Virus record (IMG/VR): IMGVR_UViG_3300049218_000313 | Span: 62,001-126,000 of that record | Reading direction: 5' to 3' (one strand) | DNA length: 64,000 nucleotides | Origin: a virus | Shown here: in pieces, positions 4,339 through 51,346 of the stretch | Position numbering within the stretch: position 1 is the first letter of the stretch | Layout: each line of letters begins with the position of its first letter | The notes under the pieces: model-generated | The model's input: only the letters and a program-made list of their open reading frames with translations | Database searches by the model: none | What the model was told of the DNA's origin: nothing | Position numbers and translations under genes: made by a program

Positions 4339-4347
4339 CCTTATCCC
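4339..4347 (-). promoter_or_regulatory. GGNATAAG promoter-like element upstream of thyX
   Basis: Minus-strand GGGATAAG ending at 4340, 35 bases before the thyX start at 4305. One of nine similar sites in the window. AAGTCCT lies 12 bases upstream of GATAAG and recurs 13 bases upstream of the CATAAG at 25849. Confidence 0.45.
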
Positions 4348-4404
4348 GTGTTGCGCGAGGACTTTTCACGGTAGCCCCCGCACCAGTGAAAGAGAAGGGC
4401 GCTA

Positions 4405-6762
4405 CTACGGGTGGAACGCCGCGTAGCTGGTCATCACATAGACTGTGCTTGTTCCGTCGGAGTGCACGCAGGTGAGCTCCCAGACATGGTGGCCCCCGCT
4501 AGTGAAGGTGCCGTCGGTCACGCTCGGGTTTACGGGCAGCAGGTTCGCACCCGTGACGCTGCCGAACGAGTCCGCGTTGTAAACGGTGATGGTCTTACCA
4601 CCGCCGCTACGCGTGGCGCAATTAGGGATACCCCCCGTGAAGCTGAGTATTCCGCCTGTGCCGAAGGGCTCACTGCCGATGAGCACGAACTTCATCCCAA
4701 CCGCGACATTGAAAGGCAGTCGGATCTGACCTACCGTGAAGGAAGTCACACCCGACGCGACGACGAAGCCCGCGGTGCCCCAGCGCGGAACACTTGTCGC
4801 GAGCGTGACGCCTGCGTCAGCCTCGTTGGAGAAGTCGCAGTAGGATGTACCGCCGGTGGTCGTGACATTACCGATATTGGTGAACTGGTCATGCACCGTG
4901 CCCTTGATCGGGCCCTGACCGGAGATGCTGCCGATGTGCGGCTCGCTCGAGATGACGGGCGCATACGGCCCCCCGGTGTTCTCCACAGAGAACTGGAGGC
5001 TCGTGAACTGCCCGAGGTTCGTGACCATGGCTCCAGTCACGCTGAGGTCCGCGAAGCCAACAGTGTTGGCCCCCGCCGAGAGCGTGCTGATGGCAGACGC
5101 GTTGATGGACCCGTCAGACAGCAGCGTTCCCAGCTGCTGCCACACGCCGGGGCTGGACCCCGTCATATCGCGCTCGAGACTTCCCCAGGCGAGAGCGATT
5201 CCGAGCGAGCCGTTGATGTAGTTGTAGTGCGCGCCGAAGTACGCGGTCACCACACCGAAGAGCTGCTTCCAGGCACCCGAGTTGTCCAGGGTGTCCCTCG
5301 TCAGCGGCGCTGCAGGCGGCAAGCAGTAGAACCCGCCGTCCACGGTGCCGAGATTCGTGGTGCCGAACAGCTGCTTCGCATTCGAGGCGCCGTACCGGTA
5401 GCCCATGCGACCGGCCACCCAGGTCACCGTGCACGCAGTCGGACCCGCGGTGATTGCGGCGATAGAACCACTATCCAGCGTTGTGCAGTAGACGCTGACC
5501 GGCGAAGACAGGAACTCGACCATGGTCAGCGCAACGGTCACGCCCGCGATGGTCACCTCGAGAACGTCGATGCCCAGCGCCACCATCGTGTCGTTCGACA
5601 CGTTGTTCCAGAAGTACCCCGAACCGAGAACCACCTCGTAGAGACCCGGCGTGGCGGTGGTCGCGATGGTCGCCGACGTGTTCGGAGCGATCTTCGTGGC
5701 GTAGCCGTGTCCCGTGGTGGGCGACCCCGTCAGAATCGGCTCGAGGTGACGCGAAAAGCTCTGGAAGCCGTACAGGCTCGGAGTCGGCTCTGTCGACGTC
5801 GAAGAGCCCGCGATGGTCCACTCGCGCCCCAGGAAGAGGAAGCCGCCGGAGCCTAGTGGGTAGGTGGTCTGGTCAGCACCGAGCTCGAGGCCCTGCGCCG
5901 TGTAGAGCGCCTGGTACGGGTCGACGTACGCGCGTGCGGTCTGCGTGCCCTGCACCGTCAGAGACTGACCGTCGCGCGTGATGACCCCGCCGGAGCCCGG
6001 TGTGTTGAACGCCCCGGAGACGCCCGTCGTCGAGCGCCGGTAGGCCCCGTCCAGCCCGCGCGCAGTGAGGTCCCAGACGGTGGAGTCCCACGCTGCGTTC
6101 CAGGCTTCGTTGTTGCCGTGCAGGAGCCGGAAGAGCTCCTCGACCTTGGAGTCGACCTCGGTGAGGTCTCGGATGTGGACGCTGGTCAGCCCATCGGCAG
6201 GGAAGGTCGCGAAGTTGCCACGCTCGGCGTAGTAGACCTGGTAGGCCACGGGCGCGGGGAAGTTGAACGTCAGCGCGACGTTGCCGCTCGAGAAGCCGCC
6301 GCCGATCGACACGGGGGTACCGCCGCCATCAACGGCCGCGGTGACGACCATCTTCGTCCCGCTCGCGTTGAGGATGTCCTCGTCGTTGAGGTCCGTGATG
6401 TGGAACAGGTCCTCGAACGCGTCGTCGCCGACCAGACCCATGAAGACGCCAGGGCCGACGAGCGTGAGCCCCGTGTCGCTGATCGAGCCTGAACCCGAAC
6501 GCACCGGGATGGCGATGTCCCTGTGCAGCAAATTGTCGAGGTAGTCGGTGTTGGTGGCCAGTGCGAGCGCAGGACGGTTGGCGTTCGCGCTCGTGGCGTC
6601 GTCGTCGAACCCGACAAAGTACGAGCCCGCGTTCGTGCCACCCGACAAGACGCCGTCGGCGTACGCAGGGGTGCCCGAAGTGGCGTTGTTGATGTAGTCG
6701 TAGCCGCTGGGAAGCCCGCCGAAGTAGGTCGGGACAGTCAGGCGATGAAACGCTGCGGTCAT
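4405..6762 (-). CDS. Large virion protein (tail fibre/baseplate type), 785 aa
   Basis: 785 residues, Gly/Thr/Ser-rich beta sequence throughout with no transmembrane segment and no obvious enzyme motif. A charged helical stretch near residues 200-215 (DLTEVDSKVEELFRLLHGN) could be a trimeric coiled-coil or linker, as in phage fibres. It sits between the thyX unit and a 223-residue tail protein that ends 2 bases from its start, so it belongs to the tail/baseplate run at 4405-20471. The role as fibre or spike is inferred from size, composition and place. Confidence 0.75.
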   Translation of the reverse strand: MTAAFHRLTVPTYFGGLPSGYDYINNATSGTPAYADGVLSGGTNAGSYFVGFDDDATSANANRPALALATNTDYLDNLLHRDIAIPVRSGSGSISDTGLTLVGPGVFMGLVGDDAFEDLFHITDLNDEDILNASGTKMVVTAAVDGGGTPVSIGGGFSSGNVALTFNFPAPVAYQVYYAERGNFATFPADGLTSVHIRDLTEVDSKVEELFRLLHGNNEAWNAAWDSTVWDLTARGLDGAYRRSTTGVSGAFNTPGSGGVITRDGQSLTVQGTQTARAYVDPYQALYTAQGLELGADQTTYPLGSGGFLFLGREWTIAGSSTSTEPTPSLYGFQSFSRHLEPILTGSPTTGHGYATKIAPNTSATIATTATPGLYEVVLGSGYFWNNVSNDTMVALGIDVLEVTIAGVTVALTMVEFLSSPVSVYCTTLDSGSIAAITAGPTACTVTWVAGRMGYRYGASNAKQLFGTTNLGTVDGGFYCLPPAAPLTRDTLDNSGAWKQLFGVVTAYFGAHYNYINGSLGIALAWGSLERDMTGSSPGVWQQLGTLLSDGSINASAISTLSAGANTVGFADLSVTGAMVTNLGQFTSLQFSVENTGGPYAPVISSEPHIGSISGQGPIKGTVHDQFTNIGNVTTTGGTSYCDFSNEADAGVTLATSVPRWGTAGFVVASGVTSFTVGQIRLPFNVAVGMKFVLIGSEPFGTGGILSFTGGIPNCATRSGGGKTITVYNADSFGSVTGANLLPVNPSVTDGTFTSGGHHVWELTCVHSDGTSTVYVMTSYAAFHP

Positions 6763-6763
6763 G

Positions 6764-7435
6764 TCAGAACCTCACTGTCCAGGAAACTTCCAGGTCGAAG
6801 GCGTCCGTCTTGCTGATGGTGTCGAACGTGTCGTAGGCCACCCCGGTGTTGTTCCACACGCTGATGCTCGCCGCAGAGGTGAAGAGCATGACCTCCGAAA
6901 GCGGTACGCTGAGGAAGGGACTGTAGCTGACGTCAGACTCTTGGAAGAGGACGCTGAAGGTCGCCGAGGTCGGGGGTACGAACGTAGGCGGCGCCTGCAC
7001 CTGGGCAAGCCACACGTCGCCGCCGACGCCAGGGTAGGCCGTCGAACCGCCCGAGACGCGCACCGGGCGCTCGAGCGTGGTGACCGTCGGGTCGGTGTCC
7101 GTCTGGGCATTGGAGCCCGGGTACGCGGTCACCAGCGGGGCGGCGTTGGCTACGGCGAGGGCCAGCTGCTGGGTGCCCCCAATGCCCAGGCCCATGTACT
7201 GGATGCGGTCGTTGCGCTCCGGCACCGCCGGACCGAAGGAGGCGTAGGAGATCAGCGACGCCAGGTACTCTCGCCCGAGGTTCAACCAGATGTTGTGGCC
7301 CACCCGGCGCGCGGCGATCTTGCCACGGCAGCGTGCGGTCAGAACGAGGTTGCTCTTCACCTCGATGAGGTCTTCTACACGACGACCACCGCGGCCGACG
7401 GGCAGCGCGCGCGACTTCCCGGACTTCTTGATCAT
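6764..7435 (-). CDS. Tail structural protein, 223 aa
   Basis: Starts with a basic tail (MIKKSGKSRALPVGRGGRR). A segment NIWLNLGREYLASLISY followed by IQYMGLGIGGT is a pattern seen in many phage tail-associated proteins of unknown function. The rest is beta-rich and ends in a DLEVSWTVRF strand. It overlaps its upstream neighbour by four bases and is separated by one base from the next gene. Most likely a tail or baseplate component. Confidence 0.75.
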   Translation of the reverse strand: MIKKSGKSRALPVGRGGRRVEDLIEVKSNLVLTARCRGKIAARRVGHNIWLNLGREYLASLISYASFGPAVPERNDRIQYMGLGIGGTQQLALAVANAAPLVTAYPGSNAQTDTDPTVTTLERPVRVSGGSTAYPGVGGDVWLAQVQAPPTFVPPTSATFSVLFQESDVSYSPFLSVPLSEVMLFTSAASISVWNNTGVAYDTFDTISKTDAFDLEVSWTVRF

Positions 7436-7923: not shown

Positions 7924-10900
7924 CTACATGTCCTTGTAGACGAAGTAGGTCCCCGCGGGGACGGTCTCATCGAAGGCCCATGATACCGCCTGACCCAGGG
8001 TCACGAGAACGCTGGTCCATTCGACGGGCACAATGCCCGTTCCCGTCGAGCGGATGTAGCAGGTGAGCGTCGAGCCACTGTTCGTCGGACCGGCGGGCGT
8101 GACCGCCTGCGTCAGTGTGAAGCCGGCGGGGTTGTAGTCCCCGAAGACGCAGACCACGTCGCTGGCGGTTCCGCCGTTGAACTCACCGTAGGCCACGATG
8201 ACGTCCCCGGCATTGGGCTGGTAGCCGACCACGGCGACCCCGTTGACCGTTCGCACTGCGTACCCCTTACCGGCCGCAGCCCCGCTGCGCAGCACAACGT
8301 TGTCGCCGGCGGAGACGGCCCCCACCTGCTCTACGCTGGTCACGGTAAAGGTCAGAAGAAAGCCGACACCCGAGGCCGCGAAGCTAGTACCGCCCAGTAC
8401 AGCACCCACCCCCGGCGGGAAGAAGTTGGGCAGCGTGAAGTCTACGGTGATGACCGGCCCGGAGTTGTAGCCGTCGTCCCAGATCTCGAGCGCGTAGGTG
8501 TTCGGGCTGCCTGCTCGCAGGGCGTTGATCTCGAGGGTGAGCTGCTGGATGGATACCGTCGAGCCCAGCGTGAAGGGGGCCCCAATGGCGGTGCCGGGCG
8601 CAACGTGGGTAACTGCATCAACAGAGCCCGCCGAGAAGTTGGCGTAGTCCTCAGTGTACAGAGGCTGGTCGAACTGGAAGATGCCGTCAAAGTAGGGCGT
8701 CGTGGTGAACGAGAATGTCGAGGAGCACGTGCCCATGATGGCGTCCTCGGGGCAGAGGTAGTTCTTGTCGAAGCCCCAGTACACGGGGTAGTTCGGCGTC
8801 GGGAACGTAGGCGCGCCGGTACCCGGGGCGTGGTCGTACTGGCTCACCCAACCGCCGCCCGCGGGGTTGGGCTGGTCGAACATCGTCGCTGCGCCGCGGG
8901 TGCTGCCGCCCATGTAGACGCCCGAGGTGAGCCCGAGGACCGTGTTCGCCGTCGAGGTGCCGTTGGCGTGGATGACGAGGCTCTCCGTGGCAAAGAGCAG
9001 CAGGCGCGTGCCGTTGTTGCCCCCGAGCCTCGCTGAGAGGCCGTTGCCGATGCCGCTGATGGCCGCCAGGGCCGCAGCCTGCGACGCCGAAGTCGTGGAC
9101 CCATTGAAGGTGACGCTGAGCGACTCTCCGTTGACGGTCACGCCGAGTGTCTTGCCCGCCAGAGAGCCGCCTGTCCCGTAGAGCGACGCGCTGGTCATGT
9201 CCGCTGTTCCACCAACGAGGATGGGCAGCTCCGAACCGGCGAAGCACGCACCCGCGAAGAGGCTCAAGGTCCCGGACATGGACACCGAGTCGGATGTGTC
9301 GACCGTTGTGTCGCCCGTTGTACCCAGAGCTTCGAGCACGACAAAGAGGGGGTACGTGTACGTCGGCTTGATGCGCAGGACGAACGAACGCGCGAACAGA
9401 AGCGCCTGGAGGTTGAAGGCGGCCGCGTCGACACGCACCAGGAACTTGAAGAACTTCTCGACCTCGAAGAAGACACCCTGCTCGAGGTAGCCCTGGAACC
9501 AGGTCGGGTCGCTGATGTAGTCGTCGACCTCGACACCCTGAACGAGCGGAGCGAACTGCGCCACCGTGTCTCCCACCACGTAGGGTTTCCCCGTCGTCGG
9601 GTTGGTCTCGAGAGGCAAAGACGGTGGCCAGGTGTACTCACGCACGATGGCTGTGTTGGCCAGGTCCTGCACGAGTATCTGCCCCTGTGTCACGCTGAAG
9701 TCGTCCCGTACGGAGAGGATGGTGCCGGCCTGCTCGGCGAAGGGCAGCCCGAGCAAGATCTGGGTACCTGCACGCAGGTTGAACACCGTGGGTCCGTTCC
9801 AGTAGGCGTACCAGAGGCCCTGCACGGCAGAGAGGTAGTCGACGTTGCTTGGCAGCTGCGCGAGGTCGTCGAGTGTGAAGTTTGCGGGGATGCCGAAGTT
9901 GCCCTCGATGGCGGGTCGGTTATCGAGGAAGCTGGTCTCGGCCCAGAGCTGGGGCGGAGGCGCCTGACCCTCCCACACGTCGTTGCCCCCTGCATCGGAG
10001 GGCACGGGGGTGATGAAGCGCAGGCAGTTCTGGCCGCGGAAGGTGTCGACGAAGAAGTCGACGTTGCGTCGCAGTACCGCGGTGTCGTCCGTCGACTGGA
10101 TGATCTCCTGTAGCAGCGGGACATCGACGATGAGCGGGTCGAGTGGGATGTACTTCCGCCGCAGCACGCTGAACAGGTAGACCGAGTACACCGCCGGCGT
10201 AGCGAGGTAGGACCCGACGATGGTGGCATCGACGGGCAGGTTGGCGGTGAGCGCCTCGCAGGACCCAAGCACGGGGCCCTGAAGCGTCGTGATGGCGTTG
10301 GTTTGGTTGTTGATGACCTCGTAGGTGACGATGTCGCTCACCTCGCAGAGGCCGTTCCAGAAGTCGAGATCTTGCGACACGACGGTGCCCGCGATGGTCC
10401 ACACCGTGTCCGCCGGTGAGGGCAGGGCGTCGAGCAAAACAAGGCGCTGGAAGTAGAACGGATCGCTTGGGTCATCGACCACGTTGGCGATGCGGTAGGC
10501 AACGCCGTCGATGCAGAGGAAGTCGTTGAGCTCGATGTCCAGGTACTGCAGGCTCCGTTCGACGCGGTACGTGTTCAACGAAACGACAGAAGCGCCCAGG
10601 GTGCCTGTGGGAGCTCCATTCATCTGTCCGACGGAGTAGATCGGACAGGTAGATGTCGTCAGGACCGAGAAGGGAAACGGCGCGTCAATACGCAGGCGGG
10701 TGATGTTACCGGCACGCGCGGAGATCTCTCGGACGATGATGCGCGCGTCGAGCTGCGCGAAGGCCGCCTGCATGATGGCGGCGATGGCGTCTGGCGTGTA
10801 CGGGTTCGGCGCGGTGAACGAGATGATCGTCGGGAAGGAGTAGATGGAGAACTGGATGTCGAGGTGAGTGCCCGCAACACCGGTGATGCCGGCGTTGGCG

Positions 10901-12513
10901 ATGTTGATGGACTCGACCCCCGAGTAGACCGCGCGCACGGTCGACAGAGCGATGAGCGTCGGGCTCTCCTGCATCAGCAGGTCGTAGTGCAGCCACCGAC
11001 GCTGGAAGGTGCGCTGGATGTCGCGCAGGCTCTTGTTGTAGTCGACCTGCCAGAGACGAAGTAGCTCCGCCGCGGCAACCTGCGCGAGGCCTTGCCAGAA
11101 CGTCGTGATGCGCTGGCTGTCGTCGATGAGGTTCCAGAAGTCCGAGAGGTAGTTCCAGATGAACGACAGGTCAGGAGTGCAGCCGCGGGCAACCGCGGTG
11201 ACCACTACGTTGCAGATCATCTCCGAGGGCTCTGAGAAGAGCGCCCCGTTGAAGACGGTGAGGTTGAACTTCCAGATGCCCGCCACGTCCGGGTAGAAGG
11301 TCGGCCGCACCACGGTGGGCGTGTTGAGCCCGTTCTGGGGGAGGTACTTGAACGTCGTGGGGCTCGAGAGGTCGTCCGGCACTACGTAGCCGTCGATCAG
11401 CACGAAGAAGCCATCCACGTCCGTGCCCGTACCCGAGATGACGTAGACAGTGCCGCCCAAAACGATGATGTCGCCCGAGGAGATTGGTGCGGTGCCGTTA
11501 AGCGTGCCCAGATCTGCCGAGTAGAGGCGATTGGTGAAGCCCGTGGGAGGCGAGAGCGGGTAGGTGAGGCCGTCGGTGCCGTCGAAGAGGTACTGGCTGC
11601 CCGGAGGGGCGTCCACGAGCTGCCAGAGGTAAGTCAGGGGCGCAGCCTGCGGGTCGTAGCTCGCCGAGCCGTCGAGGCGCAGAATCTCGCAGAACTGGAT
11701 GGCCTGGTCGACGCCCGCATTGGCGATGGGCTGCAGGGCAGGAATGACGAGCCCTGTGCCCAGACAGATGCTGTTGAGCGCGGCGTACGTGGGCGCCGTG
11801 AGGGTTCCGCGAACGCTGACGAAGGTCTCACTGGGCGGCGTGACCGCGGCGCTCGATGAGGGAATGGCAGGCAGTACGTACCGCAGCTGGTGTCCCAGCG
11901 TCGGCAGGTCAGCAGTGCGCGTCACGTAGACGTAGACCGCCCCCGTCGAGAAGCTCATGGCGAGCCGGATGGTCCAGTACTCCCCCTCACTGACGAGAAC
12001 CTGGCTGCCAGGCAGGTCCTGCACGGGCGTGTCGAGCACCAGGGTATTGCTGCTATCGAGGTGCACCGAGCCGGTGTACGCGAGGCCGATCTTCGAGAAG
12101 AACAACCCGACGCACCCGCCGGCTGCAGCGAACGTTCCGAAGTACGCATGGCTGAGCGGGATGTTCGAGAAGTCGGGTGGCAGGTGCTCGAAGAAGACCG
12201 TGAACTCGAAGGTGAAGTTGCTCGGCACCCCGACGTCGAGGATCATCGCCGCATCGGTCGTTTCGTAGTCGCCGCCCGAATCGAGCTCCTGGTCGAGGGT
12301 GACGGGATCGATGGGAAGCTGCGAACCGTCGCCCACCGTCGAGACACCCGTGTGCGTCAGGATGGTGGAGATGGGACCGCACGGGCCGACGCAGTAGATG
12401 TCGAAGGGCAGCACGAAGGGCAGCGGCCCGCCGATGTCCGGGGTAAGCGCACCGCCCCAGGGACTCTGTCCCCAGGCGCCCGTGCCCCAACCCGGTGCGA
12501 TGCAATTCGACAT
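7924..12513 (-). CDS. Giant virion/baseplate protein, 1529 aa, with PKD-like domain
   Basis: Starts MSNCIAPGWGTGAWGQSPWG. A PKD/Ig-like domain begins near residue 260 (PIANAGVDQAIQF, then LDGSASYDP and LTYLWQL). Residues about 1105-1195 form a module (LYGTGG ... NTVLGLTSG) and about 1386-1430 a second one (LLTFTVTSV ... VLRSG ... VNG); both recur in the same order in the 1169-residue protein at 39341-42850. A middle part near residues 450-560 is helical (FLWNYLSDFWNLI type). No signal peptide. Size and location next to the baseplate-J-like gene suggest a baseplate or tail-tip scaffold, possibly host-binding. Confidence 0.8.
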   Translation of the reverse strand: MSNCIAPGWGTGAWGQSPWGGALTPDIGGPLPFVLPFDIYCVGPCGPISTILTHTGVSTVGDGSQLPIDPVTLDQELDSGGDYETTDAAMILDVGVPSNFTFEFTVFFEHLPPDFSNIPLSHAYFGTFAAAGGCVGLFFSKIGLAYTGSVHLDSSNTLVLDTPVQDLPGSQVLVSEGEYWTIRLAMSFSTGAVYVYVTRTADLPTLGHQLRYVLPAIPSSSAAVTPPSETFVSVRGTLTAPTYAALNSICLGTGLVIPALQPIANAGVDQAIQFCEILRLDGSASYDPQAAPLTYLWQLVDAPPGSQYLFDGTDGLTYPLSPPTGFTNRLYSADLGTLNGTAPISSGDIIVLGGTVYVISGTGTDVDGFFVLIDGYVVPDDLSSPTTFKYLPQNGLNTPTVVRPTFYPDVAGIWKFNLTVFNGALFSEPSEMICNVVVTAVARGCTPDLSFIWNYLSDFWNLIDDSQRITTFWQGLAQVAAAELLRLWQVDYNKSLRDIQRTFQRRWLHYDLLMQESPTLIALSTVRAVYSGVESINIANAGITGVAGTHLDIQFSIYSFPTIISFTAPNPYTPDAIAAIMQAAFAQLDARIIVREISARAGNITRLRIDAPFPFSVLTTSTCPIYSVGQMNGAPTGTLGASVVSLNTYRVERSLQYLDIELNDFLCIDGVAYRIANVVDDPSDPFYFQRLVLLDALPSPADTVWTIAGTVVSQDLDFWNGLCEVSDIVTYEVINNQTNAITTLQGPVLGSCEALTANLPVDATIVGSYLATPAVYSVYLFSVLRRKYIPLDPLIVDVPLLQEIIQSTDDTAVLRRNVDFFVDTFRGQNCLRFITPVPSDAGGNDVWEGQAPPPQLWAETSFLDNRPAIEGNFGIPANFTLDDLAQLPSNVDYLSAVQGLWYAYWNGPTVFNLRAGTQILLGLPFAEQAGTILSVRDDFSVTQGQILVQDLANTAIVREYTWPPSLPLETNPTTGKPYVVGDTVAQFAPLVQGVEVDDYISDPTWFQGYLEQGVFFEVEKFFKFLVRVDAAAFNLQALLFARSFVLRIKPTYTYPLFVVLEALGTTGDTTVDTSDSVSMSGTLSLFAGACFAGSELPILVGGTADMTSASLYGTGGSLAGKTLGVTVNGESLSVTFNGSTTSASQAAALAAISGIGNGLSARLGGNNGTRLLLFATESLVIHANGTSTANTVLGLTSGVYMGGSTRGAATMFDQPNPAGGGWVSQYDHAPGTGAPTFPTPNYPVYWGFDKNYLCPEDAIMGTCSSTFSFTTTPYFDGIFQFDQPLYTEDYANFSAGSVDAVTHVAPGTAIGAPFTLGSTVSIQQLTLEINALRAGSPNTYALEIWDDGYNSGPVITVDFTLPNFFPPGVGAVLGGTSFAASGVGFLLTFTVTSVEQVGAVSAGDNVVLRSGAAAGKGYAVRTVNGVAVVGYQPNAGDVIVAYGEFNGGTASDVVCVFGDYNPAGFTLTQAVTPAGPTNSGSTLTCYIRSTGTGIVPVEWTSVLVTLGQAVSWAFDETVPAGTYFVYKDM

Positions 12514-12522: not shown

Positions 12523-15390
12523 TCACGCCAGGGGCGAGTAGCGCCAAGAGCGGAACGAGCGGAGGTGTCCGAGAGCTCCCGCGACACTCTCGTACTCCGT
12601 GTTGTCGAACGTGACCTGGTAGACGTAGTTCCCCAGTGGCACGAGCATGGGATGCGGCGCATATCCGTTCGCGACCGCCAGGTTGGAGTAGACGCCCTGG
12701 TAGGTCATCGTCAGATCGTAGACGCGCGCCTGCGAAGTCGCGGCAGACGCCCACAACAGCCAGTACTGACCGTCCAGGTAGACCGCCCTGCTCCCCTCGT
12801 AGGTGACGGCCGTTGTGTCCGACGCGACCGCGGCCCAGGTGCCTCCCGGACTCGAGGACGAAGCGAGCGCGGGGTAGAAGGCGCTCGAGGTGCTCGGAGC
12901 GAGTACGTAGGCCAGCCACCACGTCGAGCCGTCGAAGAAGCAGTACGGGTCGTAAGAGCCGATGCTCCCGGACGTGCCAGGCAAGCTGGGAGTCGTCACG
13001 GAGTTCACGACATGCGCGCCCGACAGAAGGTTCAGCGCGGTCTCGTGCTTGTAGAGGATGTTGATGTACGGCCCACCAGAGCCCACCTCGGTGTTGGCCC
13101 AGGACGAGATGAAGAAGTAGAAGCCCCCGCTGCCGTCCTCGATGATGTGCGCTGCGTTGTCGTTTTGGATGACGCCGAGGGTCGCGGTAGTAGCGCCCGT
13201 GGTCCCGGTATATGCCGTCGTCAGCGTGATGGACCCGGACGACACGCTCTGAACGACGTAGTACACGCCCGGCTGAGCAGCGAACTGCACGACCGAGTTC
13301 TGGAACAGAATGCCCACCTGAGAGGTGCTCGTAGTCACACTCGTGGACGCAGCGGTCGTGAACGTCCCAGACAGCGAAGCACTCGTGCTCGGCGCAGTGC
13401 CTGCCGCCGTGATGCGGTCGACCATGATGGCCCCGACCTGCGTCAGTGTTCTGGCAACGAGGTCGTAGGTGAACACGCCACAGTACGCGGACGCGCCAGG
13501 GTCGGTCGCCGTGGCTGTCAGCCACACCTGGTTGCCGCTAAGAACGGGGGAACCGCTGGCAGCAGAGACGACGCACGTGTCGCGCAGACCGCTTGCACCG
13601 AAGCTGCCGACCTTGAAGTTCGAGAACGACACCGTGAGGGCGGCACCGTTGTTGGGGAAGTAAGCGGCGGCCCACGATCCGTACCAAGTGTTGGCGACCA
13701 CGGAACCGTACGTGCGGAAGTCGTAGTGCGAGCTCAGACCGGCTGTGCTGATGGCTGTCCACGTGCCGCCGGACGGGCAGTACCAGATCGTCGCGTTGTC
13801 GCCGACGAGCGAGAAGCCGAGGTCGAACGGTGGAGTCCACGAAACGCTGACCTGGGCGATGCCGTCGGTGCTCGTGCCAGCGATCTTGATGTGGATGCGT
13901 ACGTACCCAGAGTTCTGCCTCCAGGTCGCGTAGCAGTAGTTGTTCGAGTCCTTCGCGATGCCGACCGAGTAGTCCTCGTAGGTGCTGCCGCCTGTGTTGC
14001 TCGCCGCGGCGATGTGGATCGTGGCGCAGACCTGCGGCATCCCGATAGGGGCGCCCTCGAGCATCAGGTTGTTGTACTGGGTGGACCCGTCACCCGTCTG
14101 GGTGAAGGTGAACTCAGAGCTGACGACCGTCGCCGTGTTCGGCACGCCCTCCGAGACCATCGTCCAAGGTGCGTAGGCCCCCTGCGTGGCCGCGCTTGTG
14201 TACCCGGTGTACTGGCTGGCCAGTGTGATGGTCGTAGAAGTGACGCTCTGAACCTGGTACCAGACGAACGCCTGCGTCTGGAAAGCAATCGAGCTGCCCG
14301 CCTTCAGCACCGAGGTCTGGTCTACCGTTGTAGTGACCGTCGTAGAGCTGTTGGTCACAGAGAAGGTCCCAGATAGCGCAGGCGCCGTGAAGGCACTCTC
14401 GGTGAACGACTCGGTCAGGTACACCAGGCTGGGAGGCTGGATGCCCACGCCCGTGGCCAGCAGAGGATCGATGTTCGCGACCTCGTGCGGGTTCAGGTCG
14501 ACAGGGTTGTTCTCTTGCGCACTGCTGGTAGCCCCGAACTCCCAGTCAGAGCCCGTCCACTGCAGTGCTCCCGCCGAGAGCCCAGGCAGAGGCTGTCCCA
14601 GAATGCCGATGACTTCCTGGTCGGTGCTCGAGCCGAAGAGGTCACCGTTTGCGATGAAGCCACTCGGACCCGACGAAAAGACCCACGCGGTGCCGTTGTA
14701 CGTGAGGTAGCCCTCGGTGAGCGTCGGCAGTGCGTGGCGGAGGAGCCCCGTGACTTCCCAAGAGAATGTCGTGCCCCCGAGGTCACCCCCGGCCGAAACC
14801 TCCTGGTAGGTCCAGAAGGAGCCTGTGTACGTGAGGCAGCCGAGGCCGAGCGTACCTGGTAGCGGCTCCCCCAGGATGCCAACGACTTCCTGCGAGGTGG
14901 ACGTTCCGCTCAAGTCCCCGCCGGGCGTGAACGACGACCCGCCGAGGTTCGCCAGTATGTCGGCGAGTATGAACTCGAGCGCAGCGGACCAGCCACGCAC
15001 GTTGCCTTCCATGTTGTCTTCGGCTGGCAGTTCACCGACACCCGGGATGCGCCAGCCGCGGTTCACCAGGGTGCCCGTGTTGTTGTAGCGAACGGCCGCG
15101 ACGAGAACCTGCACATTGCCAGGGCCGCCGCCGCTCGTGGCGAGCTGCACGCGGTAGGTGCCCGCCAGGTCCGGGGTGAAGGTGGCGCTCGACTCGTTCG
15201 CGTCAGCTAGCACCGCGGCGCTGCCTGCCGGGATGCTCAAGAACTCCCACGCGTAGGAGATGTTGCCGCTCGTCGTGCAGCGACAAGTAACCTCCCAGGA
15301 AAGCCACAGGTCGTCGCGCGCGATGCCCGGCGAGCCGTAGGACGGCGTCGAGGGGCGTGCCTGGTCAAAGGCAATGATGGCACCGGGCAT
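12523..15390 (-). CDS. Tail fibre-like protein, 955 aa, with internal repeats and propeller-like C-terminus
   Basis: Begins with an Ig/PKD-like domain (YAWEFLSIPAGSAAVLADAN, about residues 45-65). Residues about 155-285 hold three copies of a roughly 43-residue unit (GGDLSGTSTSQEVVGILG and variants with PLPG), typical of long-tail-fibre shafts. A module of about 65 residues starting LSGTF occurs twice (about 338-404 and 668-733). The last 200 residues contain YDPYCFFDGSTWWLAYV and YLDGQYWLLWAS, resembling blades of GH43-type beta-propellers. I infer a fibre with a carbohydrate-binding or sugar-cleaving tip; catalytic residues cannot be assigned. Confidence 0.75.
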   Translation of the reverse strand: MPGAIIAFDQARPSTPSYGSPGIARDDLWLSWEVTCRCTTSGNISYAWEFLSIPAGSAAVLADANESSATFTPDLAGTYRVQLATSGGGPGNVQVLVAAVRYNNTGTLVNRGWRIPGVGELPAEDNMEGNVRGWSAALEFILADILANLGGSSFTPGGDLSGTSTSQEVVGILGEPLPGTLGLGCLTYTGSFWTYQEVSAGGDLGGTTFSWEVTGLLRHALPTLTEGYLTYNGTAWVFSSGPSGFIANGDLFGSSTDQEVIGILGQPLPGLSAGALQWTGSDWEFGATSSAQENNPVDLNPHEVANIDPLLATGVGIQPPSLVYLTESFTESAFTAPALSGTFSVTNSSTTVTTTVDQTSVLKAGSSIAFQTQAFVWYQVQSVTSTTITLASQYTGYTSAATQGAYAPWTMVSEGVPNTATVVSSEFTFTQTGDGSTQYNNLMLEGAPIGMPQVCATIHIAAASNTGGSTYEDYSVGIAKDSNNYCYATWRQNSGYVRIHIKIAGTSTDGIAQVSVSWTPPFDLGFSLVGDNATIWYCPSGGTWTAISTAGLSSHYDFRTYGSVVANTWYGSWAAAYFPNNGAALTVSFSNFKVGSFGASGLRDTCVVSAASGSPVLSGNQVWLTATATDPGASAYCGVFTYDLVARTLTQVGAIMVDRITAAGTAPSTSASLSGTFTTAASTSVTTSTSQVGILFQNSVVQFAAQPGVYYVVQSVSSGSITLTTAYTGTTGATTATLGVIQNDNAAHIIEDGSGGFYFFISSWANTEVGSGGPYINILYKHETALNLLSGAHVVNSVTTPSLPGTSGSIGSYDPYCFFDGSTWWLAYVLAPSTSSAFYPALASSSSPGGTWAAVASDTTAVTYEGSRAVYLDGQYWLLWASAATSQARVYDLTMTYQGVYSNLAVANGYAPHPMLVPLGNYVYQVTFDNTEYESVAGALGHLRSFRSWRYSPLA

Positions 15391-15398
15391 TGTTGTCC

Positions 15399-15407
15399 TC
15401 TTATACT
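15399..15407 (-). promoter_or_regulatory. TATAAGAGG element just before the 955-aa gene
   Basis: Minus-strand AGTATAAGAGG, only about 10 bases before the ATG at 15390. It resembles the GGNATAAG sites, but AAGAGG also works as the ribosome site here, so this copy may not be a promoter. Confidence 0.3.
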
Positions 15408-15427
15408 CGCTGCTCTAGGTTCTGAGA

Positions 15428-15706
15428 ATGGTCATCAAGCCCATGGATCCAGCGCTCGTGCTGAAGGCGGTAGAAGGCTACCAGAACGAGCTCGCCCCGG
15501 AGGCCAAGGCGCTCGAGGCGTTCTACCGGCAGTTCGTGTGCACGCACTGCGGGGGGCCATGCCGCAAGGAGTTCGTCCGCGGGCACGTCTTCTCGGACCC
15601 CGACGTGGCGGTACCGCGCGCGTGCTTGCGTTGTACTTCCTGCGGACTGTTGTTCGATCCCCACTCGGGTCTCCTTGTCGAAGGGCCTACGTCAAGGTCC
15701 GAGTAA
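15428..15706 (+). CDS. Small Cys-pair protein on the plus strand
   Basis: 92 residues on the opposite strand to its neighbours (ATG at 15428, alternative at 15443). It has two cysteine clusters, CTHCGGPC and CLRCTSCG, separated by about 25 residues, a zinc-ribbon arrangement. The first 30 residues are helical and charged. Its end overlaps the end of the baseplate gene by 20 bases, a tail-to-tail meeting. The Cys spacing and amino-acid makeup look coding, but the isolated orientation lowers confidence. Possible small regulator or nucleic-acid-binding protein. Confidence 0.6.
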   Translation: MVIKPMDPALVLKAVEGYQNELAPEAKALEAFYRQFVCTHCGGPCRKEFVRGHVFSDPDVAVPRACLRCTSCGLLFDPHSGLLVEGPTSRSE

Positions 15707-18700: not shown

Positions 18701-19808
18701 ACTGGTCCTCGAGGTCGAGCGTCTGTGCGTCGACAACCGCGATGACGTTGATGTCGCGAACCAGCGGCACCGAGAAGGTGGGGTACGCATTGGCCAGCGT
18801 CAGGACGAAGCCCTTGATGGGCGTCTGTGTCGGGCCGATGAGCTGCGTGAAGTCGATGCCCGGGTCCGTGGTGTGCACCCGGCGGGTCAGGACCATGTCC
18901 TCGCCGTCGGCCTGTGCCGACATGAGCGTGCCGGCGCCCAGAATGGGGCCCAGGCCACCGCCGGTGAGGATGTCGCGCTGCATCTCGGGGTCGTTGAAGC
19001 CCCGGACGTTGATCTGGGTTACGTCGGAGAAGTCGTTGGTGATCTGAGCGACGACGCCCGCCACGGTGACCAGCGACCGCTCGGTGAGCTCCTGCTCGAC
19101 CCTGTCGATGAACTCGACGGCCGTCTCGGCGTCCACACCCGTCGAGAAGCGGGACTTGTTGGTGATGCGCGTGGCGCTGGCCACGTTCGCGATGGTCACC
19201 ACATCATCCGGGCCGATGTTGTACTGGTCACCAGCAGCTTCGGCGACGACGTTGATGTCGAAGAAGTAGAGCGTCCCCTCGAGGTTCAGGAGCATCTCGG
19301 CGACGCTTATGCCCTGCACCTCGGTCGGGTAGAAGTGCAGGCCCTCCTGGGTCGTGACGAAGTTGGCCGGAGTGATGGAGATGTCCTGGGGCTGGGCGAA
19401 GTAGATGCGCACCACACCCGTGGCCAGGTTGCCAGTCTCTCGGGTCGCGAAGAGGTTTGCCCCGAGCGCATCCGCTTCATCGGTCGTGAGGACGGTTGGG
19501 TCCTGGAACGACTGCGCGTTGGCCACGCGCGTGATTTCCCGAACGATGGGGTTCCACAACACGATGGCCGCCTTGATGAGCAAGTCGGTGATCGCGTCAC
19601 CCTCTTTCGTGGGCATCTGCGGGAAGTTCTGGTTGAGCAGCGTCTGGATGAACTGCCCGATGTCGACCGTGAAGGGGTCGGTGCCAAGCCGCGCGAGGAT
19701 GGGCTGTACGACCTGGACGTCGTAGGGGGAGCCCGGCGTCAGGTCGAGCGAAGAATCGACGTTGCCGAGGCACTGGATGATGAAGGCTTGGAGGTCGGCA
19801 AGGGCCAT
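15687..19808 (-). CDS. Baseplate J-like protein, 1373 aa
   Basis: The N-terminal 250 residues show a baseplate-J-like pattern: a helical start (EGDAITDLLIKAAIVLWNPI), a segment with LTTDEADALGANLFATR and IYFAQPQDISI, FYTEV-like strands, then EFIDRVEQELTERSLVT. A similar arrangement reappears near the C-terminus (YYFDVELISQGTGDSYNIG ... DLQMTVKGF) ending in GAISIQNPITLLAVIHNF. Baseplate J proteins form the wedge that links tail tube to fibres in contractile phages. This one is several times the usual 300-500 residues, with inserted modules at about 724-795 and 1006-1080 that end in LFGYDD or LLGFSL. It anchors the reading of 4405-20471 as a tail/baseplate module. Confidence 0.8.
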   Translation of the reverse strand: MALADLQAFIIQCLGNVDSSLDLTPGSPYDVQVVQPILARLGTDPFTVDIGQFIQTLLNQNFPQMPTKEGDAITDLLIKAAIVLWNPIVREITRVANAQSFQDPTVLTTDEADALGANLFATRETGNLATGVVRIYFAQPQDISITPANFVTTQEGLHFYPTEVQGISVAEMLLNLEGTLYFFDINVVAEAAGDQYNIGPDDVVTIANVASATRITNKSRFSTGVDAETAVEFIDRVEQELTERSLVTVAGVVAQITNDFSDVTQINVRGFNDPEMQRDILTGGGLGPILGAGTLMSAQADGEDMVLTRRVHTTDPGIDFTQLIGPTQTPIKGFVLTLANAYPTFSVPLVRDINVIAVVDAQTLDLEDQFISYQAANCVWTLRAVSLSLSNIPGGILYPNQPDGTVTVPSNEIHIGGCTDVYVRASALDSDSLVLSDIVDDQPLLAGTKLAFEASDPPYPDNQVVQLLDFTMGVPGGYSENDPTWQAINDAPLYGYTLQILDPPNAGPYRILEVVQVNGSSPILVVSPAFTYLPGTFRWRISAEIFIDLVEPKDTKVSGSDMSSVLGQSTLTTNGGTDFQNYGVGVNDVVRITNGPVAGDYVVTAAPLAPFYTRLQVTPSLPASANDLSYYIFTPNPAGGLDLPFIRIDSIDLLDTSGQPVGTTIPYANPIDVESQGFANSAHGVKADIDDGILGIVSRPFPTGVTIVSGRNVLHIGWDGLSSPIIVTLTAGLLFIADVVNQVNSAAFLATGISRLAVVTPDGERMGILPIDTNTTVYAGVVGSALATLFGYDDGVTNYTSRDIRSGDPGASQIDTASSGGGWASLRPALDTVFDVAQVLDGNQIGFYDGLTVPNAPYNDTKYDPLRTKNDFSPEVSRHIQVGSRSLGTARCYFMDPTSFQVDSNTLFTYTALDGSEYNYIPDPTNNYQRIPSLPSGTQPTDGNVNGALPSDLYFESLSTDFIAQGIQKGDLLVIDYVPLLGTVALGNSVSMLATKIITLNVGGGVDKNIIFVNDSSSIPSTDVTTTGLVNQINEVVGQTVCSLSTGTPAYLEFQADVEIIVRGSSASNSANALLGFSLVAGVDQSNNSPIKGTYQIDMVGPAGDVHQVVIDPDAPAPYLTSFASTADDGQAIQQFQVLRAGVQRIVSTTMSTQVETANLYYFDVELISQGTGDSYNIGADLQMTVKGFQSDGYYLTTDDPNLTFSPVEKPKLHISTSILEVGTSDDPSNATLLPGQNLQVNYDRSNTVANVDNYIRSDTERVINESPLARHLIPYFVRFSLTYAGGSAESLLTSDIQTYINGLEPAQTLDASELNQLAYNRGAISIQNPITLLAVIHNFDRTITVERSQDSLNTGSLAAFIPDVLLVTRTLT

Positions 19809-22386: not shown

Positions 22387-22389
22387 GGG

Positions 22390-23394: not shown

Positions 23395-23405
23395 CGCTTC
23401 CTTGG

Positions 23406-25848: not shown

Positions 25849-25857
25849 CTTATGCCC
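25849..25857 (-). promoter_or_regulatory. GGCATAAG promoter-like element
   Basis: Minus-strand GGGCATAAGG, 37 bases upstream of the 25812 start and in the gap between the 102- and 65-residue genes. AAGTCCT lies 13 bases upstream of the CATAAG, compare the 4340 site. Confidence 0.45.
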
Positions 25858-29266: not shown

Positions 29267-29275
29267 CTTATGCCC
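29267..29275 (-). promoter_or_regulatory. GGCATAAG promoter-like element
   Basis: Minus-strand GGGCATAAGAGG 23 bases before the GTG at 29244. Just upstream lies an imperfect inverted repeat ACCAG...CTGGT. Confidence 0.5.
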
Positions 29276-32789: not shown

Positions 32790-32798
32790 TCTTATCCC
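32790..32798 (-). promoter_or_regulatory. GGGATAAG promoter-like element
   Basis: Minus-strand GGGGGGATAAGAAAC, 19 bases before the 32772 start and just past the terminator at 32821-32848, a clear end-then-begin arrangement. Confidence 0.55.
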
Positions 32799-37310: not shown

Positions 37311-37329
37311 CTTATGCCCGAACGGGCAT
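37311..37329 (-). promoter_or_regulatory. GGCATAAG promoter-like element in an inverted repeat
   Basis: Minus-strand GGGCATAAGAAC ends 19 bases before the 37292 start. Immediately upstream is the perfect inverted repeat ATGCCCG-TT-CGGGCAT (37314-37329), which may be an operator or a terminator for the gene ending at 37337. Confidence 0.55.
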
Positions 37330-37336
37330 TGTACTT

Positions 37337-38966: not shown

Positions 38967-38990
38967 TCTTATACCGCTCGAGCTAGCGGT
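38967..38990 (-). promoter_or_regulatory. GGTATAAG promoter-like element with inverted repeat
   Basis: Minus-strand GCGGTATAAGAGAA, 40 bases before the 38928 start. An inverted repeat ACCGCT-AGCTCG-AGCGGT ends right at the element, as at 37314-37329. Confidence 0.5.
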
Positions 38991-39016
38991 TCTTCCGCCC
39001 CAGGGAGCAGCCTCGA

Positions 39017-42300: not shown

Positions 42301-42850
42301 CGGTGTGCGCAGTCTGCAGCTGGGTCATCAGCCCAGGGATGGCGGCCACGGCCTGCTGCGGGGTCTGCACGATGTTGCCGCCCTGCTTCACCGCCTGGCC
42401 TGGCCCGTTCAAGAACGTGGTGAGGTTGCTCTTGTACTGCTGGTACGCCGGCGCGGTGGTCACGTTGGTGAATACACCGGCGCGAGCAGTAGCCGCGGTG
42501 CCCAGGTTCTGTAGCGCGCTCTGGATGTTGAAGAGCGGGCTCACATCCGCCACGGGCTGTACCGAGCGGCTCATCACGCCCACCGCAGCAAGTAGCTGCT
42601 GGAAGATGGCATCCTCCGCAGTGATCTGGTCCTGCACACGACTCATGCCGAGCTGCAGAACGTAGAAAGGGGAGCTTGGGTACAAGATGAAGATTCCAGC
42701 CGCTGCCTGCTGGATGTCGTCGAACGTTACATCTGTGCGACGAACACCGAGGGTGTCATAAGGAAAGGAAATGGTGCTCTGCACCAGCTGGGTCACGACC
42801 GCATTGATCTCGTCGGTCGTGTAGTTCGAGTTGGGCACGGGCTGCGTCAT
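39341..42850 (-). CDS. Large virion protein, 1169 aa
   Basis: First 250 residues helical (TDEINAVVTQLVQSTISFPY; AGIFILYPSSPFYVLQLGMS), then a long Gly/Ser/Thr/Val-rich beta region. Two modules, at about 387-480 (LYGGGGTLNG ... TANTLLGFTLH) and 711-760 (ELTFTITSV ... ALRSG ... INGQA), recur in the same order in the 1529-residue protein at 7924-12513. C-terminal part helical again (EQVGAAVQGINDIYQYLTTA). Probably a tail, neck or fibre component, though it lies apart from the tail module. No enzyme motif. Confidence 0.75.
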   Translation of the reverse strand: MTQPVPNSNYTTDEINAVVTQLVQSTISFPYDTLGVRRTDVTFDDIQQAAAGIFILYPSSPFYVLQLGMSRVQDQITAEDAIFQQLLAAVGVMSRSVQPVADVSPLFNIQSALQNLGTAATARAGVFTNVTTAPAYQQYKSNLTTFLNGPGQAVKQGGNIVQTPQQAVAAIPGLMTQLQTAHTALVASVLALVNGIVNYNSVNLPSVVISSVLSAAGELVGNDATTLAAMTPTERLVSVRSVVLNLLATQAVIDTYGVFSGPTDFYALIGLGSAYSDVNHAATPATVTADFGGSYSIVTGVSDDLNLAVDGAAGVDIILNASSLAEIDGQASDSSFVFGNGTAPVLGGGAAIPNNNLFKFMVNGTLYTATLPITTGATAAVLTGTTDITAAGLYGGGGTLNGTTFVLTANGVTVGSATLSALANAAALIAALNGVFNVAPNPVVFSQVGVHLVATTTAVGTSAALLVGNGTANTLLGFTLHQSTPGSAGGTTTADAVAAAITAVAPAGVEGEAYYSPLRFNSSMAIPAGVNQTWTLTVPGASDLLALGVLTTDTAQVMSGVNSVGGPASNGIFYITAVTASSITVAGTTFAQTGAVVEIGPASRRVKLLCTNASTQVPAETTLSVVGPDAVSAACLTTLGMTAGATSSCSKTTPDLVAADINSKTGLVTAGTVVTTPIGPIATAHGDVTNPNLVVFMEAAVVGSTSYVGMELTFTITSVTTAGSISVGDTLALRSGPNGVLGYIISTINGQALTDHAVAVGDTIGCTTTGALANGTLITAEFGPTVNAAKYQIVTITGGPNNGTYTVTGKGATAIDVLIQQALPMVRSPVSPTTNPITMAASIGGMYLTLSSKSTTTSSKLVIGGNAAPTFFSSSPKTQLGTSQWFLLPSIPAGLQAGDLLEYYPTDFTTPSFSYEIVQVITSLNVIQVDADPVAGTYPPNNASWQFTPQPVPFARLRYGILNNFTTVQAALETWLDLAENQALYFQNLNALINPLLVGSNPTAEQVGAAVQGINDIYQYLTTAQAQAQLNDPTQALQSILKTFTIEPVPAIDTLIATYTQKGADAAIDTLLGGDFATFFGMTNETASYAGAFQVATRAVATNDLPVRKVNRAETQTSQMTGQTASPDLEYSANAVSEVIQGPQVDPPADAGEPSNYGLTTGSTGSGNQ

Positions 42851-43398: not shown

Positions 43399-43407
43399 CT
43401 TATGCAC
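43399..43407 (-). promoter_or_regulatory. TGCATAAG promoter-like element
   Basis: Minus-strand GTGCATAAGGCC. The TAA inside it is also the stop of the 43-residue frame ending at 43400. It is 90 bases upstream of the 43309 start, the longest distance of the set; the 43310-43398 leader shows no gene. Confidence 0.35.
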
Positions 43408-47580: not shown

Positions 47581-48891
47581 TCACTGCAGCACGACCAAGT
47601 ACTTGGACGCGCGTGTGATTGCTGTGTAAAGGGCTCTCTTCTTCGTGTCGAAGTCCATCGCCCTCGGCACGTCGTTGACGACGATCACGTGTTCGTAGCT
47701 TGAGCCTTGCGCCTTGTGAATCGTCATGGCGTAGCCGTAATCCATCAGCAGCCCGATGCTGTCCCAGTTATGCACGCGCCGACCGGTGAGCCGCAGGTAG
47801 TCATTGAAGTCCTTGATGGTGCCGGGCTGTCCGAACTGTGCTCGGCAGATGGGGCCCTCCACCTCGATCTCTTCGTCCTCGAAGAGGACCTTGCCGTAGT
47901 AGTTGTACTTCGTCTCGTAAGCGGGATCGAGGTGCGTGATGATGCCGCGCATTCCGTTGAAGATGTGACCTTCGACGTTCTTCAGCAGGATGACCTGGTC
48001 ACCCACCAGTGGGCCAGAGAAGACCGTCTTACCCCAGCGTGCGGTTCGCGCCAGGTCGTTGAGCGCGATGCGCTCTCGGTTGGTGAATACTAGCAAGCCC
48101 ACGTCGTCGTAGCGCAGGCCCTTGTGGCCGAAGAGCGAGAAGACCACGTCGTGGAGCTGGTCGTAGGGAAGGACCTGCACTTCGTGGCCATCCGCGCAGA
48201 ACCGGGGGATCTGTCCGGTACGACGCACGAGCGCGGACAGCGCCAGTATCGGGCTGTCCGCGGCCTGTCGGTGGATGGTCTCGAGCTTGTAGTCCGGGTT
48301 CTTCATCAGGTTGAAGTTGCCGGTGATGGGCGGCAGCTGCCCGTGGTCACCCACTGCCAGGATGGGAACGCCGTGGGCCTGCAGGTCGTCGAAGAGCGTC
48401 TTGTCGAGCATCGAGGCCTCGTCCACGACGATCAGGCTGTAGCTGTCGAGGTCGTAGCGCCGCTTCCACTCGACAAGAGCACCCGTCTTCGAGTCGGTGA
48501 TCGGACGGTACAGGAGCGAGTGAAGAGTGCTGGTTTCATGCGCGAAGGCAACCACGCCAGCTTCAGCGAACTTCTTGCGAAGCACACTGGTCGCCTTGCC
48601 CGTGAGCGCGCAGAAGGCAACGCTCTCATCTCGGTAGTGGTGGGCCAGTACCGAGATGAGCGTGCTCTTGCCCACGCCAGCGTAGCCTCCGACCGTGAGC
48701 ACGCCGCTGTCACCGCGGCGCTCGTACCAGCTGACGACGGCCTCGAACACCTCGCGCTGCTCCTTGCTCAGCGTGTTCTCGGCCATCTGTCCGCCCATCT
48801 GACGCTCGATGTCCGCGAGCAGCTCTTCTTCCTTCTTCACGAGCTTGGGTACGCGCGTGAACTTGTACGGGCTGCCTTCCTTCTTCTCCAT
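47581..48891 (-). CDS. SF1B DNA helicase, Dda/RecD-like
   Basis: 436 residues. Walker A GYAGVGKST at about 68-76, Walker B LIVVDEAS at 153-160, AVGDHGQLPPI (motif III), a DEAD/H-like region and the UvrD_C_2-type ending YAMTIHKAQGSSYEHVIVV with LYTAITRA (motifs V/VI). This is the layout of T4 Dda and RecD-like helicases, which unwind 5' to 3' and work at replication forks or recombination. Start ATG in a TGATG overlap. Good length for the class. Confidence 0.9.
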   Translation of the reverse strand: MEKKEGSPYKFTRVPKLVKKEEELLADIERQMGGQMAENTLSKEQREVFEAVVSWYERRGDSGVLTVGGYAGVGKSTLISVLAHHYRDESVAFCALTGKATSVLRKKFAEAGVVAFAHETSTLHSLLYRPITDSKTGALVEWKRRYDLDSYSLIVVDEASMLDKTLFDDLQAHGVPILAVGDHGQLPPITGNFNLMKNPDYKLETIHRQAADSPILALSALVRRTGQIPRFCADGHEVQVLPYDQLHDVVFSLFGHKGLRYDDVGLLVFTNRERIALNDLARTARWGKTVFSGPLVGDQVILLKNVEGHIFNGMRGIITHLDPAYETKYNYYGKVLFEDEEIEVEGPICRAQFGQPGTIKDFNDYLRLTGRRVHNWDSIGLLMDYGYAMTIHKAQGSSYEHVIVVNDVPRAMDFDTKKRALYTAITRASKYLVVLQ

Positions 48892-50963: not shown

Positions 50964-50970
50964 GGTGCTC

Positions 50971-51315
50971 TCACTGGGGCGACTGCCCGTCCTGGGGTGG
51001 GAACCTAAAGTACTTCTTCGCAGCGGCAACGGACATGGGCTTGTTCGCCCACCGCCAGACGCGTTCGTAGGCGCTGTTGGCTGGGTCACTGAGCATGTGC
51101 GCGTCGAGCGTGATGCTCGCACCGCGCACATCCATGGGTCCCATGATGATGCTGTAGATGAAGAGCAGGCCGTCCCTACAGGGAGCTGCGAAGGGCGGCG
51201 GTTCGGGGGTGAAGCGCCCGCCGCATCTTTCGGCGGCCGACTCGAAGAAGGTGCTGTCGATGTCGAGGAACTCGGCGTCGAGCCCCATGACGCGAACGTG
51301 GACCACAGTACTCAT
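50971..51315 (-). CDS. Hypothetical protein, 114 aa
   Basis: MSTVVHVRVMGLDAEFLDID start at 51315. Beta-rich, with FIYSIIMGPMDVRGASITLD. 23 bases downstream of an ATAAG element, so a first gene of a unit leading leftward to the terminator at 49858. No family. Confidence 0.7.
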   Translation of the reverse strand: MSTVVHVRVMGLDAEFLDIDSTFFESAAERCGGRFTPEPPPFAAPCRDGLLFIYSIIMGPMDVRGASITLDAHMLSDPANSAYERVWRWANKPMSVAAAKKYFRFPPQDGQSPQ

Positions 51316-51337
51316 GGGAAGGGTCTCCCTCGTACTT

Positions 51338-51346
51338 CTTATCCCA
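51338..51346 (-). promoter_or_regulatory. GGGATAAG promoter-like element
   Basis: Minus-strand GGTGGGATAAGAAG, 23 bases before the 51315 start, in a 45-base gap after the HTH gene. Confidence 0.5.

What the first reader, a model, noticed from the sequence alone, without database searches (positions are those of the whole stretch)
4339..51346. Recurrent minus-strand GGNATAAG element at gene-run starts
Near-identical sites lie at 4340, 15400, 25849, 29267, 32791, 37311, 38968, 43399 and 51338, all on the minus strand and nearly all in short intergenic gaps. Most end 19-40 bases before the first gene of a run (15400 and 43399 are outliers at about 10 and 90). GG precedes NATAAG in seven of nine. 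No conserved -35 hexamer is evident. A phage-specific promoter class read by a phage or altered host polymerase is a simple explanation.
Basis: partly seen in the sequence, partly recalled or inferred. Interest (0 to 1): 0.7.

Follow-up and report, generated by a model that had tools for sequence, protein, structure and literature searches.

The report
Promoters of a phage's own polymerase
The repeated GGNATAAG signal is very probably a start signal for transcription in a widespread, little-known group of bacterial viruses that carry their own bacterial-style RNA polymerase and a matching sigma factor, so these viruses may switch on their genes without the host's polymerase.

Summary
The window is part of a 137 kb phage record. 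GGNATAAG occurs 16 times there: 14 between genes and pointing into the next gene, although 87% of the record is coding. It is the most over-represented upstream 8-mer in this phage and several relatives. It is the -10 half of a bipartite promoter: GCAA at -34..-31, a 16-17 nt spacer, GGNATAAG at -14..-7, then T-1 G+1.

The phage encodes a 2146-aa fused beta-beta' RNA polymerase and a sigma-70-family factor (window 56112-56921, minus). Both recur in relatives with the same promoter, including cultured Salmonella phage Arash, where published proteomics found polymerase and orthologous sigma in virions. In an IMG/VR scan, 11 of 21 contigs chosen by the promoter alone encode the polymerase, against 0 of 21 for a scrambled control.

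Best explanation: promoters of non-structural genes read by the phage's own RNAP-sigma holoenzyme. No transcript start has been mapped. New variant of a known kind.

The parts
4340..4347 (-). Extended -10 core GGGATAAG; GAAA -35 at 4364-4367; T-1 G+1 present, predicted start of transcription 4333; upstream of a ThyX-like gene (3436-4335 by my call; its true start codon is probably further downstream, after the predicted transcript start)
   Evidence: Pfam Thy1 8.2e-26; core also present upstream of the orthologous gene in two relatives
25849..25856 (-). Core GGCATAAG; GCAA -35 at 25873-25876; predicted start 25842; upstream of 25504-25812
   Evidence: conserved at the orthologous gene in relative G001
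29267..29274 (-). Core GGCATAAG; GCAA -35 at 29291-29294; predicted start 29260; upstream of 28699-29244
32791..32798 (-). Core GGGATAAG; GCAA -35 at 32815-32818; predicted start 32784; upstream of ORF 32500-32772
37311..37318 (-). Core GGCATAAG; AGAA -35 at 37335-37338; T-1 G+1 present, predicted start 37304; upstream of 36702-37292
38968..38975 (-). Core GGTATAAG; GGAA -35 at 38993-38996 (17 nt spacer); T-1 G+1 present, predicted start 38961; upstream of 38737-38928
51338..51345 (-). Core GGGATAAG without a recognisable GCAA or TG; intergenic, 22 nt before gene 50971-51315; weaker candidate promoter
19306..19313 (-). Exact core match inside a coding sequence (15687-19808), no -35, no TG: probably a chance match
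15400..15407 (-).
43399..43406 (-).
56112..56921 (-). Gene of a 269-aa sigma-70-family factor (three helical blocks, consistent with regions 2, 3 and 4), orthologue of Arash virion sigma Gp10; candidate reader of the promoter
   Evidence: Pfam Sigma70_r3 1.2e-10; PDB sigma matches; phmmer to Gp10 9e-25; AlphaFold mean pLDDT 81.7; Foldseek matches to sigma-S and sigma-A chains

Best explanation
GGNATAAG is the extended -10 element of a bipartite, sigma-dependent phage promoter: GCAA at -34..-31, a 16-17 nt spacer, GGNATAAG at -14..-7, then T-1 G+1. It is read by the phage's own transcription machinery, a single-chain fused beta-beta' RNA polymerase plus the phage sigma factor encoded at window 56112-56921. 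It drives non-structural (early or middle) gene runs. By analogy with Arash, polymerase and sigma may enter with the virion, so that early genes would not need the host polymerase. Shown here by sequence: the motif, its spacing, its placement, its conservation, and the co-occurrence of polymerase and sigma. Inferred: the transcription start, which sigma reads it, timing, and virion delivery in this phage.
For: Placement: 14 of 16 sites intergenic and co-oriented. De novo: top gapped 8-mer upstream of genes in own record (12 seen, 0.16 expected), the 171 kb copy, and relatives G001 and G003; GGNATAAG or GNTATAAG is at or near the top in G019, G021, Arash and D69. Architecture: GCAA at 16-17 nt in 54 of 157 sites against about 1 per other spacing; TG at offset 13 in 79 of 157 against about 8. 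GCAA-N15-18-GGNATAAG gives 154 matches against 3 for the reversed pattern in 25 records. Footprint: at 8 orthologous promoter pairs the core (except N) and the first A of the -35 are identical while most flanking positions agree in 12-50%. Machinery: 2146-aa beta-beta' with NADFDGD, alignable to Thermus beta' through the clamp-helix region; no alpha; sigma with a region 3 match in 20 of 25 records. Prediction from the motif alone: 11 of 21 promoter-bearing contigs encode the polymerase, 0 of 21 control contigs. Virion: Arash polymerase (3516 and 1210 spectra) and sigma Gp10 (467 spectra, 24 peptides) found in particles (PMC10585845). Covariation of parts: Arash and D69 sigma have a diverged region 4, and Arash lacks, and D69 has only weakly, the AA of the -35.
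Against: No transcript start is mapped in any member. Sigma binding to this polymerase, and not to the host core, is untested. Records G001 and G022 carry the motif but gave no sigma hit; they may be incomplete or the sigma divergent. Only some sites have GCAA and TG (AA of the -35 at 9 and TG at 6 of 14 intergenic sites in the own record at the fixed position). The Arash particle preparation also held many metabolic enzymes, and its authors allow for carry-over. Structural genes of the own phage largely lack the motif and their promoter was not found.
Confidence: 0.78

Rival explanations
1. The phage sigma redirects the host core polymerase to these promoters (as T4 gp55 does), and the phage polymerase serves another gene class.
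For: Phage sigma factors that use host core are well known, and reviews describe this for jumbo phages without their own polymerase (PMC7598289, PMC13282480). The sigma resembles bacterial SigA over regions 2-3.
Against: Promoter and phage polymerase co-occur tightly (11 of 21 against 0 of 21). The core is kept across genomes from 45% to 64% GC. Polymerase and the orthologous sigma are both found in Arash particles.
Confidence: 0.13
2. Ordinary host housekeeping promoters of the extended -10 type (TGnTATAAT-like), read by host sigma-70/sigma-A.
For: TGGTATAAG in Arash and TGTTATAAG in D69 look like extended -10 elements with A at -11.
Against: The de novo word has G at -7, where sigma-70 prefers T (own knowledge); -12 is free in the own phage; the -35 is GCAA and not TTGACA; the same core recurs in phages whose GC runs from 45% to 64%.
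Confidence: 0.04
3. A binding site for a repressor or activator, or an RNA element in the 5' leader, rather than a promoter core.
For: The core is short and near start codons.
Against: Not palindromic; two parts at fixed 16-17 nt spacing plus TG at exactly the start position; no Rfam match in the window.
Confidence: 0.03
4. Chance or compositional artefact.
For: An 8-mer with one free position is short.
Against: 0 of 100 shuffles; reversed and permuted controls; recurrence across relatives.
Confidence: 0.01

Closest known systems
Bacterial sigma-70-family promoters, extended -10 type
   Same: -35 element near -34, about 17 nt spacing, A at -11, purine start 7 nt after position -7, a sigma consistent with regions 2-3-4
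   Different: GCAA instead of TTGACA, G at -7 instead of T, read most likely by a virus-encoded single-chain polymerase
phiKZ/AR9 virion and non-virion RNA polymerases of jumbo phages (PMC7598289, PMC7824862)
   Same: Phage-encoded beta/beta'-type polymerase without alpha; early promoters tied to a virion enzyme
   Different: Those are split into several chains, have no sigma recognisable by sequence (gp68/gp226 instead) and use other motifs; here beta and beta' are fused and a sequence-recognisable sigma is encoded
mReC Caudovirales (Weinheimer and Aylward 2020, PMC7481178)
   Same: Metagenomic tailed phages whose polymerase is recognisably bacterial-like
   Different: Their capsid PF07068 and terminase PF03237 were not found in this phage; the words sigma and promoter do not occur in that paper and it does not describe a fusion in mReC; overlap with this clade was not tested by a tree
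Salmonella phage Arash (OQ632216, PMC10585845)
   Same: Related polymerase, orthologous sigma Gp10, same GGTATAAG word upstream of genes
   Different: Polymerase split in two genes; -35 element not evident; promoters not described in its paper
T4 late promoters (TATAAATA, gp55)
   Same: ATAA-containing -10-like core in a phage
   Different: T4 late promoters use host core and have no -35 (own knowledge); the TAAAATA motif in front of Arash and D69 structural genes looks more like it

Membership tests
sigma-70-family bipartite promoter | -35 element at a fixed spacing of about 16-18 nt | tested here: met
   GCAA at 16 or 17 nt in 54 of 157 sites, about 1 at other spacings
sigma-70-family bipartite promoter | -10 hexamer with A-11 and T-7 | tested here: not met
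   A-11 present but G at -7; the unbiased de novo search also returns G there
sigma-70-family bipartite promoter | transcription starts 6-7 nt downstream | not testable with these tools
   T-1 G+1 enriched at that position (79 of 157), but no transcript data
sigma-70 family protein (window 56112-56921) | regions 2, 3 and 4 | tested here: met
   Pfam region 3 above cut-off, SigA alignment through regions 2-3, model with three helical blocks and sigma matches; Pfam region 2 alone was not detected in this phage
Cellular-type beta/beta' RNA polymerase | beta and beta' catalytic domains with NADFDGD | tested here: met
Cellular-type beta/beta' RNA polymerase | alpha subunit | tested here: not met
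   PF01193 not found in six genomes, control genomes positive
phiKZ/AR9-type jumbo phage polymerase | beta and beta' split into several chains, no sequence-recognisable sigma | tested here: not met
   one 2146-aa open frame, also in relatives; sigma present
mReC | capsid PF07068 and terminase PF03237 | tested here: not met
   capsid homologue without Pfam match, terminase PF05876; the Arash terminase matches both terminase families
mReC | polymerase falls in the mReC clade of the tree | not tested
   no tree was built
T4 late promoter system | no -35 element; host core polymerase | tested here: not met
   -35 element present; the phage encodes its own polymerase, though its use here is inferred

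The most novel reading that the evidence does not exclude
A widely distributed clade of tailed phages injects a complete host-independent RNA polymerase holoenzyme (fused beta-beta' plus its own sigma-70-family factor) that fires GCAA/GGNATAAG early promoters. Some members then switch to a second phage sigma (Gp196 type) that reads TAAAATA late promoters: a two-sigma cascade run entirely by the virus.
Probability: 0.45. Interest if true: 0.88.

Novelty: new variant of a known kind. Interest (0 to 1): 0.74.

Why it matters
Reviews state that jumbo phages with their own multisubunit polymerase lack sigma factors recognisable by sequence, and that phages with sigma factors rely on the host core (PMC7598289, PMC7824862). 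A clade with both, and with a promoter consensus that can be read from sequence, would give a virus-encoded counterpart of the bacterial holoenzyme, a single-chain alpha-free polymerase for structural work, and possibly an orthogonal promoter-sigma-polymerase set. It can be tested at once because a cultured member (Arash) exists. The consensus also makes operons of many unannotated phage genomes predictable.

Tried and rejected
1) Equal frequency in coding sequence: rejected (2 of 16 sites in an 87% coding record). 3) RNA element: no Rfam match; fixed two-part spacing favours DNA recognition. 4) Late promoter of this phage: pooled upstream regions of structural genes in three relatives gave no clear second motif, only the divergent GGNATAAG in reverse and a T-rich TTTTAGCC. 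5) A second sigma like Arash Gp196 was not found in this phage. 7) The pattern with a 17 nt spacer alone under-counts; the main spacer is 16. 8) Near-identity search of phage records found nothing. 9) Paper searches for GGNATAAG, Arash promoters or a fused phage RpoB-RpoC gave no earlier description, but the library holds open-licence papers only.

Full report
WHAT WAS CHECKED. The window is bases 62001-126000 of a 137,334-base virus record. A longer, circularly permuted copy of the same phage, 171,415 bases, called G002 here, exists in IMG/VR. GGNATAAG occurs 8 times in the window, all on the minus strand, against 1.74 expected and never 8 in 100 shuffles. In the whole record it occurs 16 times against 1 for the pattern read backwards. 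The other two have imperfect cores.

PLACEMENT. I called genes with a codon-usage script (148 genes, 87% coding). Fourteen of the 16 sites are intergenic and point into the next gene; two lie in coding sequence (P = 3.6e-11). The strand bias in the window is only local gene direction: plus-strand sites stand in front of plus-strand genes elsewhere. Permuted versions of the pattern gave on average 0.8 upstream intergenic hits, at most 7, against 12.

ARCHITECTURE. A search of all gapped 8-mers upstream of genes returned GGNATAAG as the best word in this record, in G002 and in relatives G001 and G003. It or GNTATAAG is first or nearly first in G019, G021, Arash and D69; the signal is weaker in G015 and G022. 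Aligning the sites showed two further conserved parts. In six pooled genomes (157 sites) GCAA lies exactly 16 nt (42 sites) or 17 nt (12) upstream, with about one at any other spacing, and TG lies at offset 13 in 79 sites against about 8 elsewhere. If the final G of the core is -7, then GCAA is -34..-31 and TG is -1/+1, the geometry of a sigma-dependent promoter. GCAA-N15-18-GGNATAAG gives 154 matches against 3 for the reversed pattern in 25 records. At eight orthologous promoter pairs the core (except N) and the first A of the -35 never differ, while most flanking positions agree in 12-50%.

MACHINERY. Outside the window (record bases 22245-28685, minus) a single 2146-aa frame holds beta domains followed by beta' domains, with the NADFDGD catalytic motif; it aligns to Thermus beta' through the region of the clamp helices, where bacterial sigma binds (the role of the clamp helices is own knowledge). 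Sixty-three IMG/VR loci encode relatives at 38-100% identity. No alpha subunit was found. Window 56112-56921 (minus) encodes a 269-aa sigma-70-family protein. Its model (mean pLDDT 81.7, pTM 0.43) has three helical blocks and matches sigma-S and sigma-A chains; the global superposition is poor (TM about 0.3), as expected if the domains are flexibly linked. It is orthologous to Gp10 of Salmonella phage Arash (9e-25), and Pfam region 3 is found in 20 of 25 records of the clade.

CO-OCCURRENCE TEST. I scanned IMG/VR with GCAA-N16-17-GGNATAAG-A-N4-TG and asked whether contigs found this way encode the polymerase. Eleven of 21 do, including all four newly found contigs with two or more sites. With the core reversed none of 21 does. 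The control contigs were shorter on average, which is a partial confounder.

CULTURED RELATIVE. Arash encodes a related polymerase in two genes and the orthologous sigma. It has 43 GGNATAAG, mostly GGTATAAG on the strand of non-structural genes, against 15 in the control. Its published particle proteome lists the polymerase proteins (3516 and 1210 spectra) and sigma Gp10 (467 spectra, 24 unique peptides); the authors note that carry-over is possible (PMC10585845). The words promoter and motif do not occur in that paper. A second sigma, Gp196, is not in the particle list. In Arash and Vibrio phage D69 the plus-strand (largely structural) genes have almost no GGNATAAG-type sites (1 of 28 and 0 of 30 upstream regions) and carry TAAAATA instead (Arash 5 of 28 against 0 of 99 on the other strand; D69 12 of 30 against 2 of 90). 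This suggests early and late classes with two sigmas. In the own phage GGNATAAG stands in 14 of 72 other upstream regions and 2 of 27 structural ones; its late promoter was not found.

MECHANISM. Most likely (0.78) the fused polymerase plus this sigma form a phage holoenzyme that reads the promoter and transcribes non-structural genes. Shown by sequence: motif, spacing, placement, conservation and co-occurrence. Inferred: start site, sigma assignment, timing and virion delivery. A supporting detail: the Arash and D69 sigmas have a diverged region 4, and the AA of the -35 is absent in Arash and weak in D69. The main rival (0.13) is phage sigma with host core.

NOVELTY. Reviews describe polymerase-encoding jumbo phages as lacking sigma (PMC7598289; PMC7824862), and the mReC paper mentions neither sigma nor promoters (PMC7481178). 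Within the held open-access library I found no description of this promoter or of a fused beta-beta' phage enzyme of this kind with its own sigma. I rate it a new variant of a known kind: sigma-dependent transcription, carried by a virus.

Noticed in passing
G000 (own record) 22245-28685 minus, outside the window: 2146-aa fused beta-beta' RNA polymerase with intact NADFDGD; 63 IMG/VR loci with relatives.
   Followed up: yes
Arash OQ632216 and D69 OZ195729, plus-strand structural genes: TAAAATA motif, mostly 25-60 nt upstream of plus-strand genes, a likely late promoter class; in Arash it often abuts a divergent GGTATAAG.
   Followed up: partly
Arash gp196 (120656-121693) and D69 133187-133963: Second, RpoS-like sigma not listed in Arash particles; candidate reader of the late motif.
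   Followed up: partly
Arash 130093-141261: The polymerase is split into two genes (gp206, gp216) about 4.8 kb apart with other genes between; D69 has a similar break, with small ORFs between the parts and a homing endonuclease gene just upstream.
   Followed up: no
G000 8167-11019 minus and 13518-16391 minus: Hint and LAGLIDADG matches in a 950-aa protein, and a weak LAGLIDADG match in the terminase: possible inteins or homing elements.
   Followed up: no
window 47581-48891 minus: Dda-like helicase (phrog_325, 2.4e-86).
   Followed up: no
window 39341-42850 minus; 58765-60225 minus: Large proteins (1169 and 486 aa) without any PHROG match.
   Followed up: no
structural-gene upstream regions of G002, G001 and G003: Over-represented TTTTAGCC-like word, unexplained; possibly part of terminators.
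   Followed up: no
G001 and G022: Carry the promoter and the polymerase but no sigma hit; incomplete records or a divergent sigma.
   Followed up: partly
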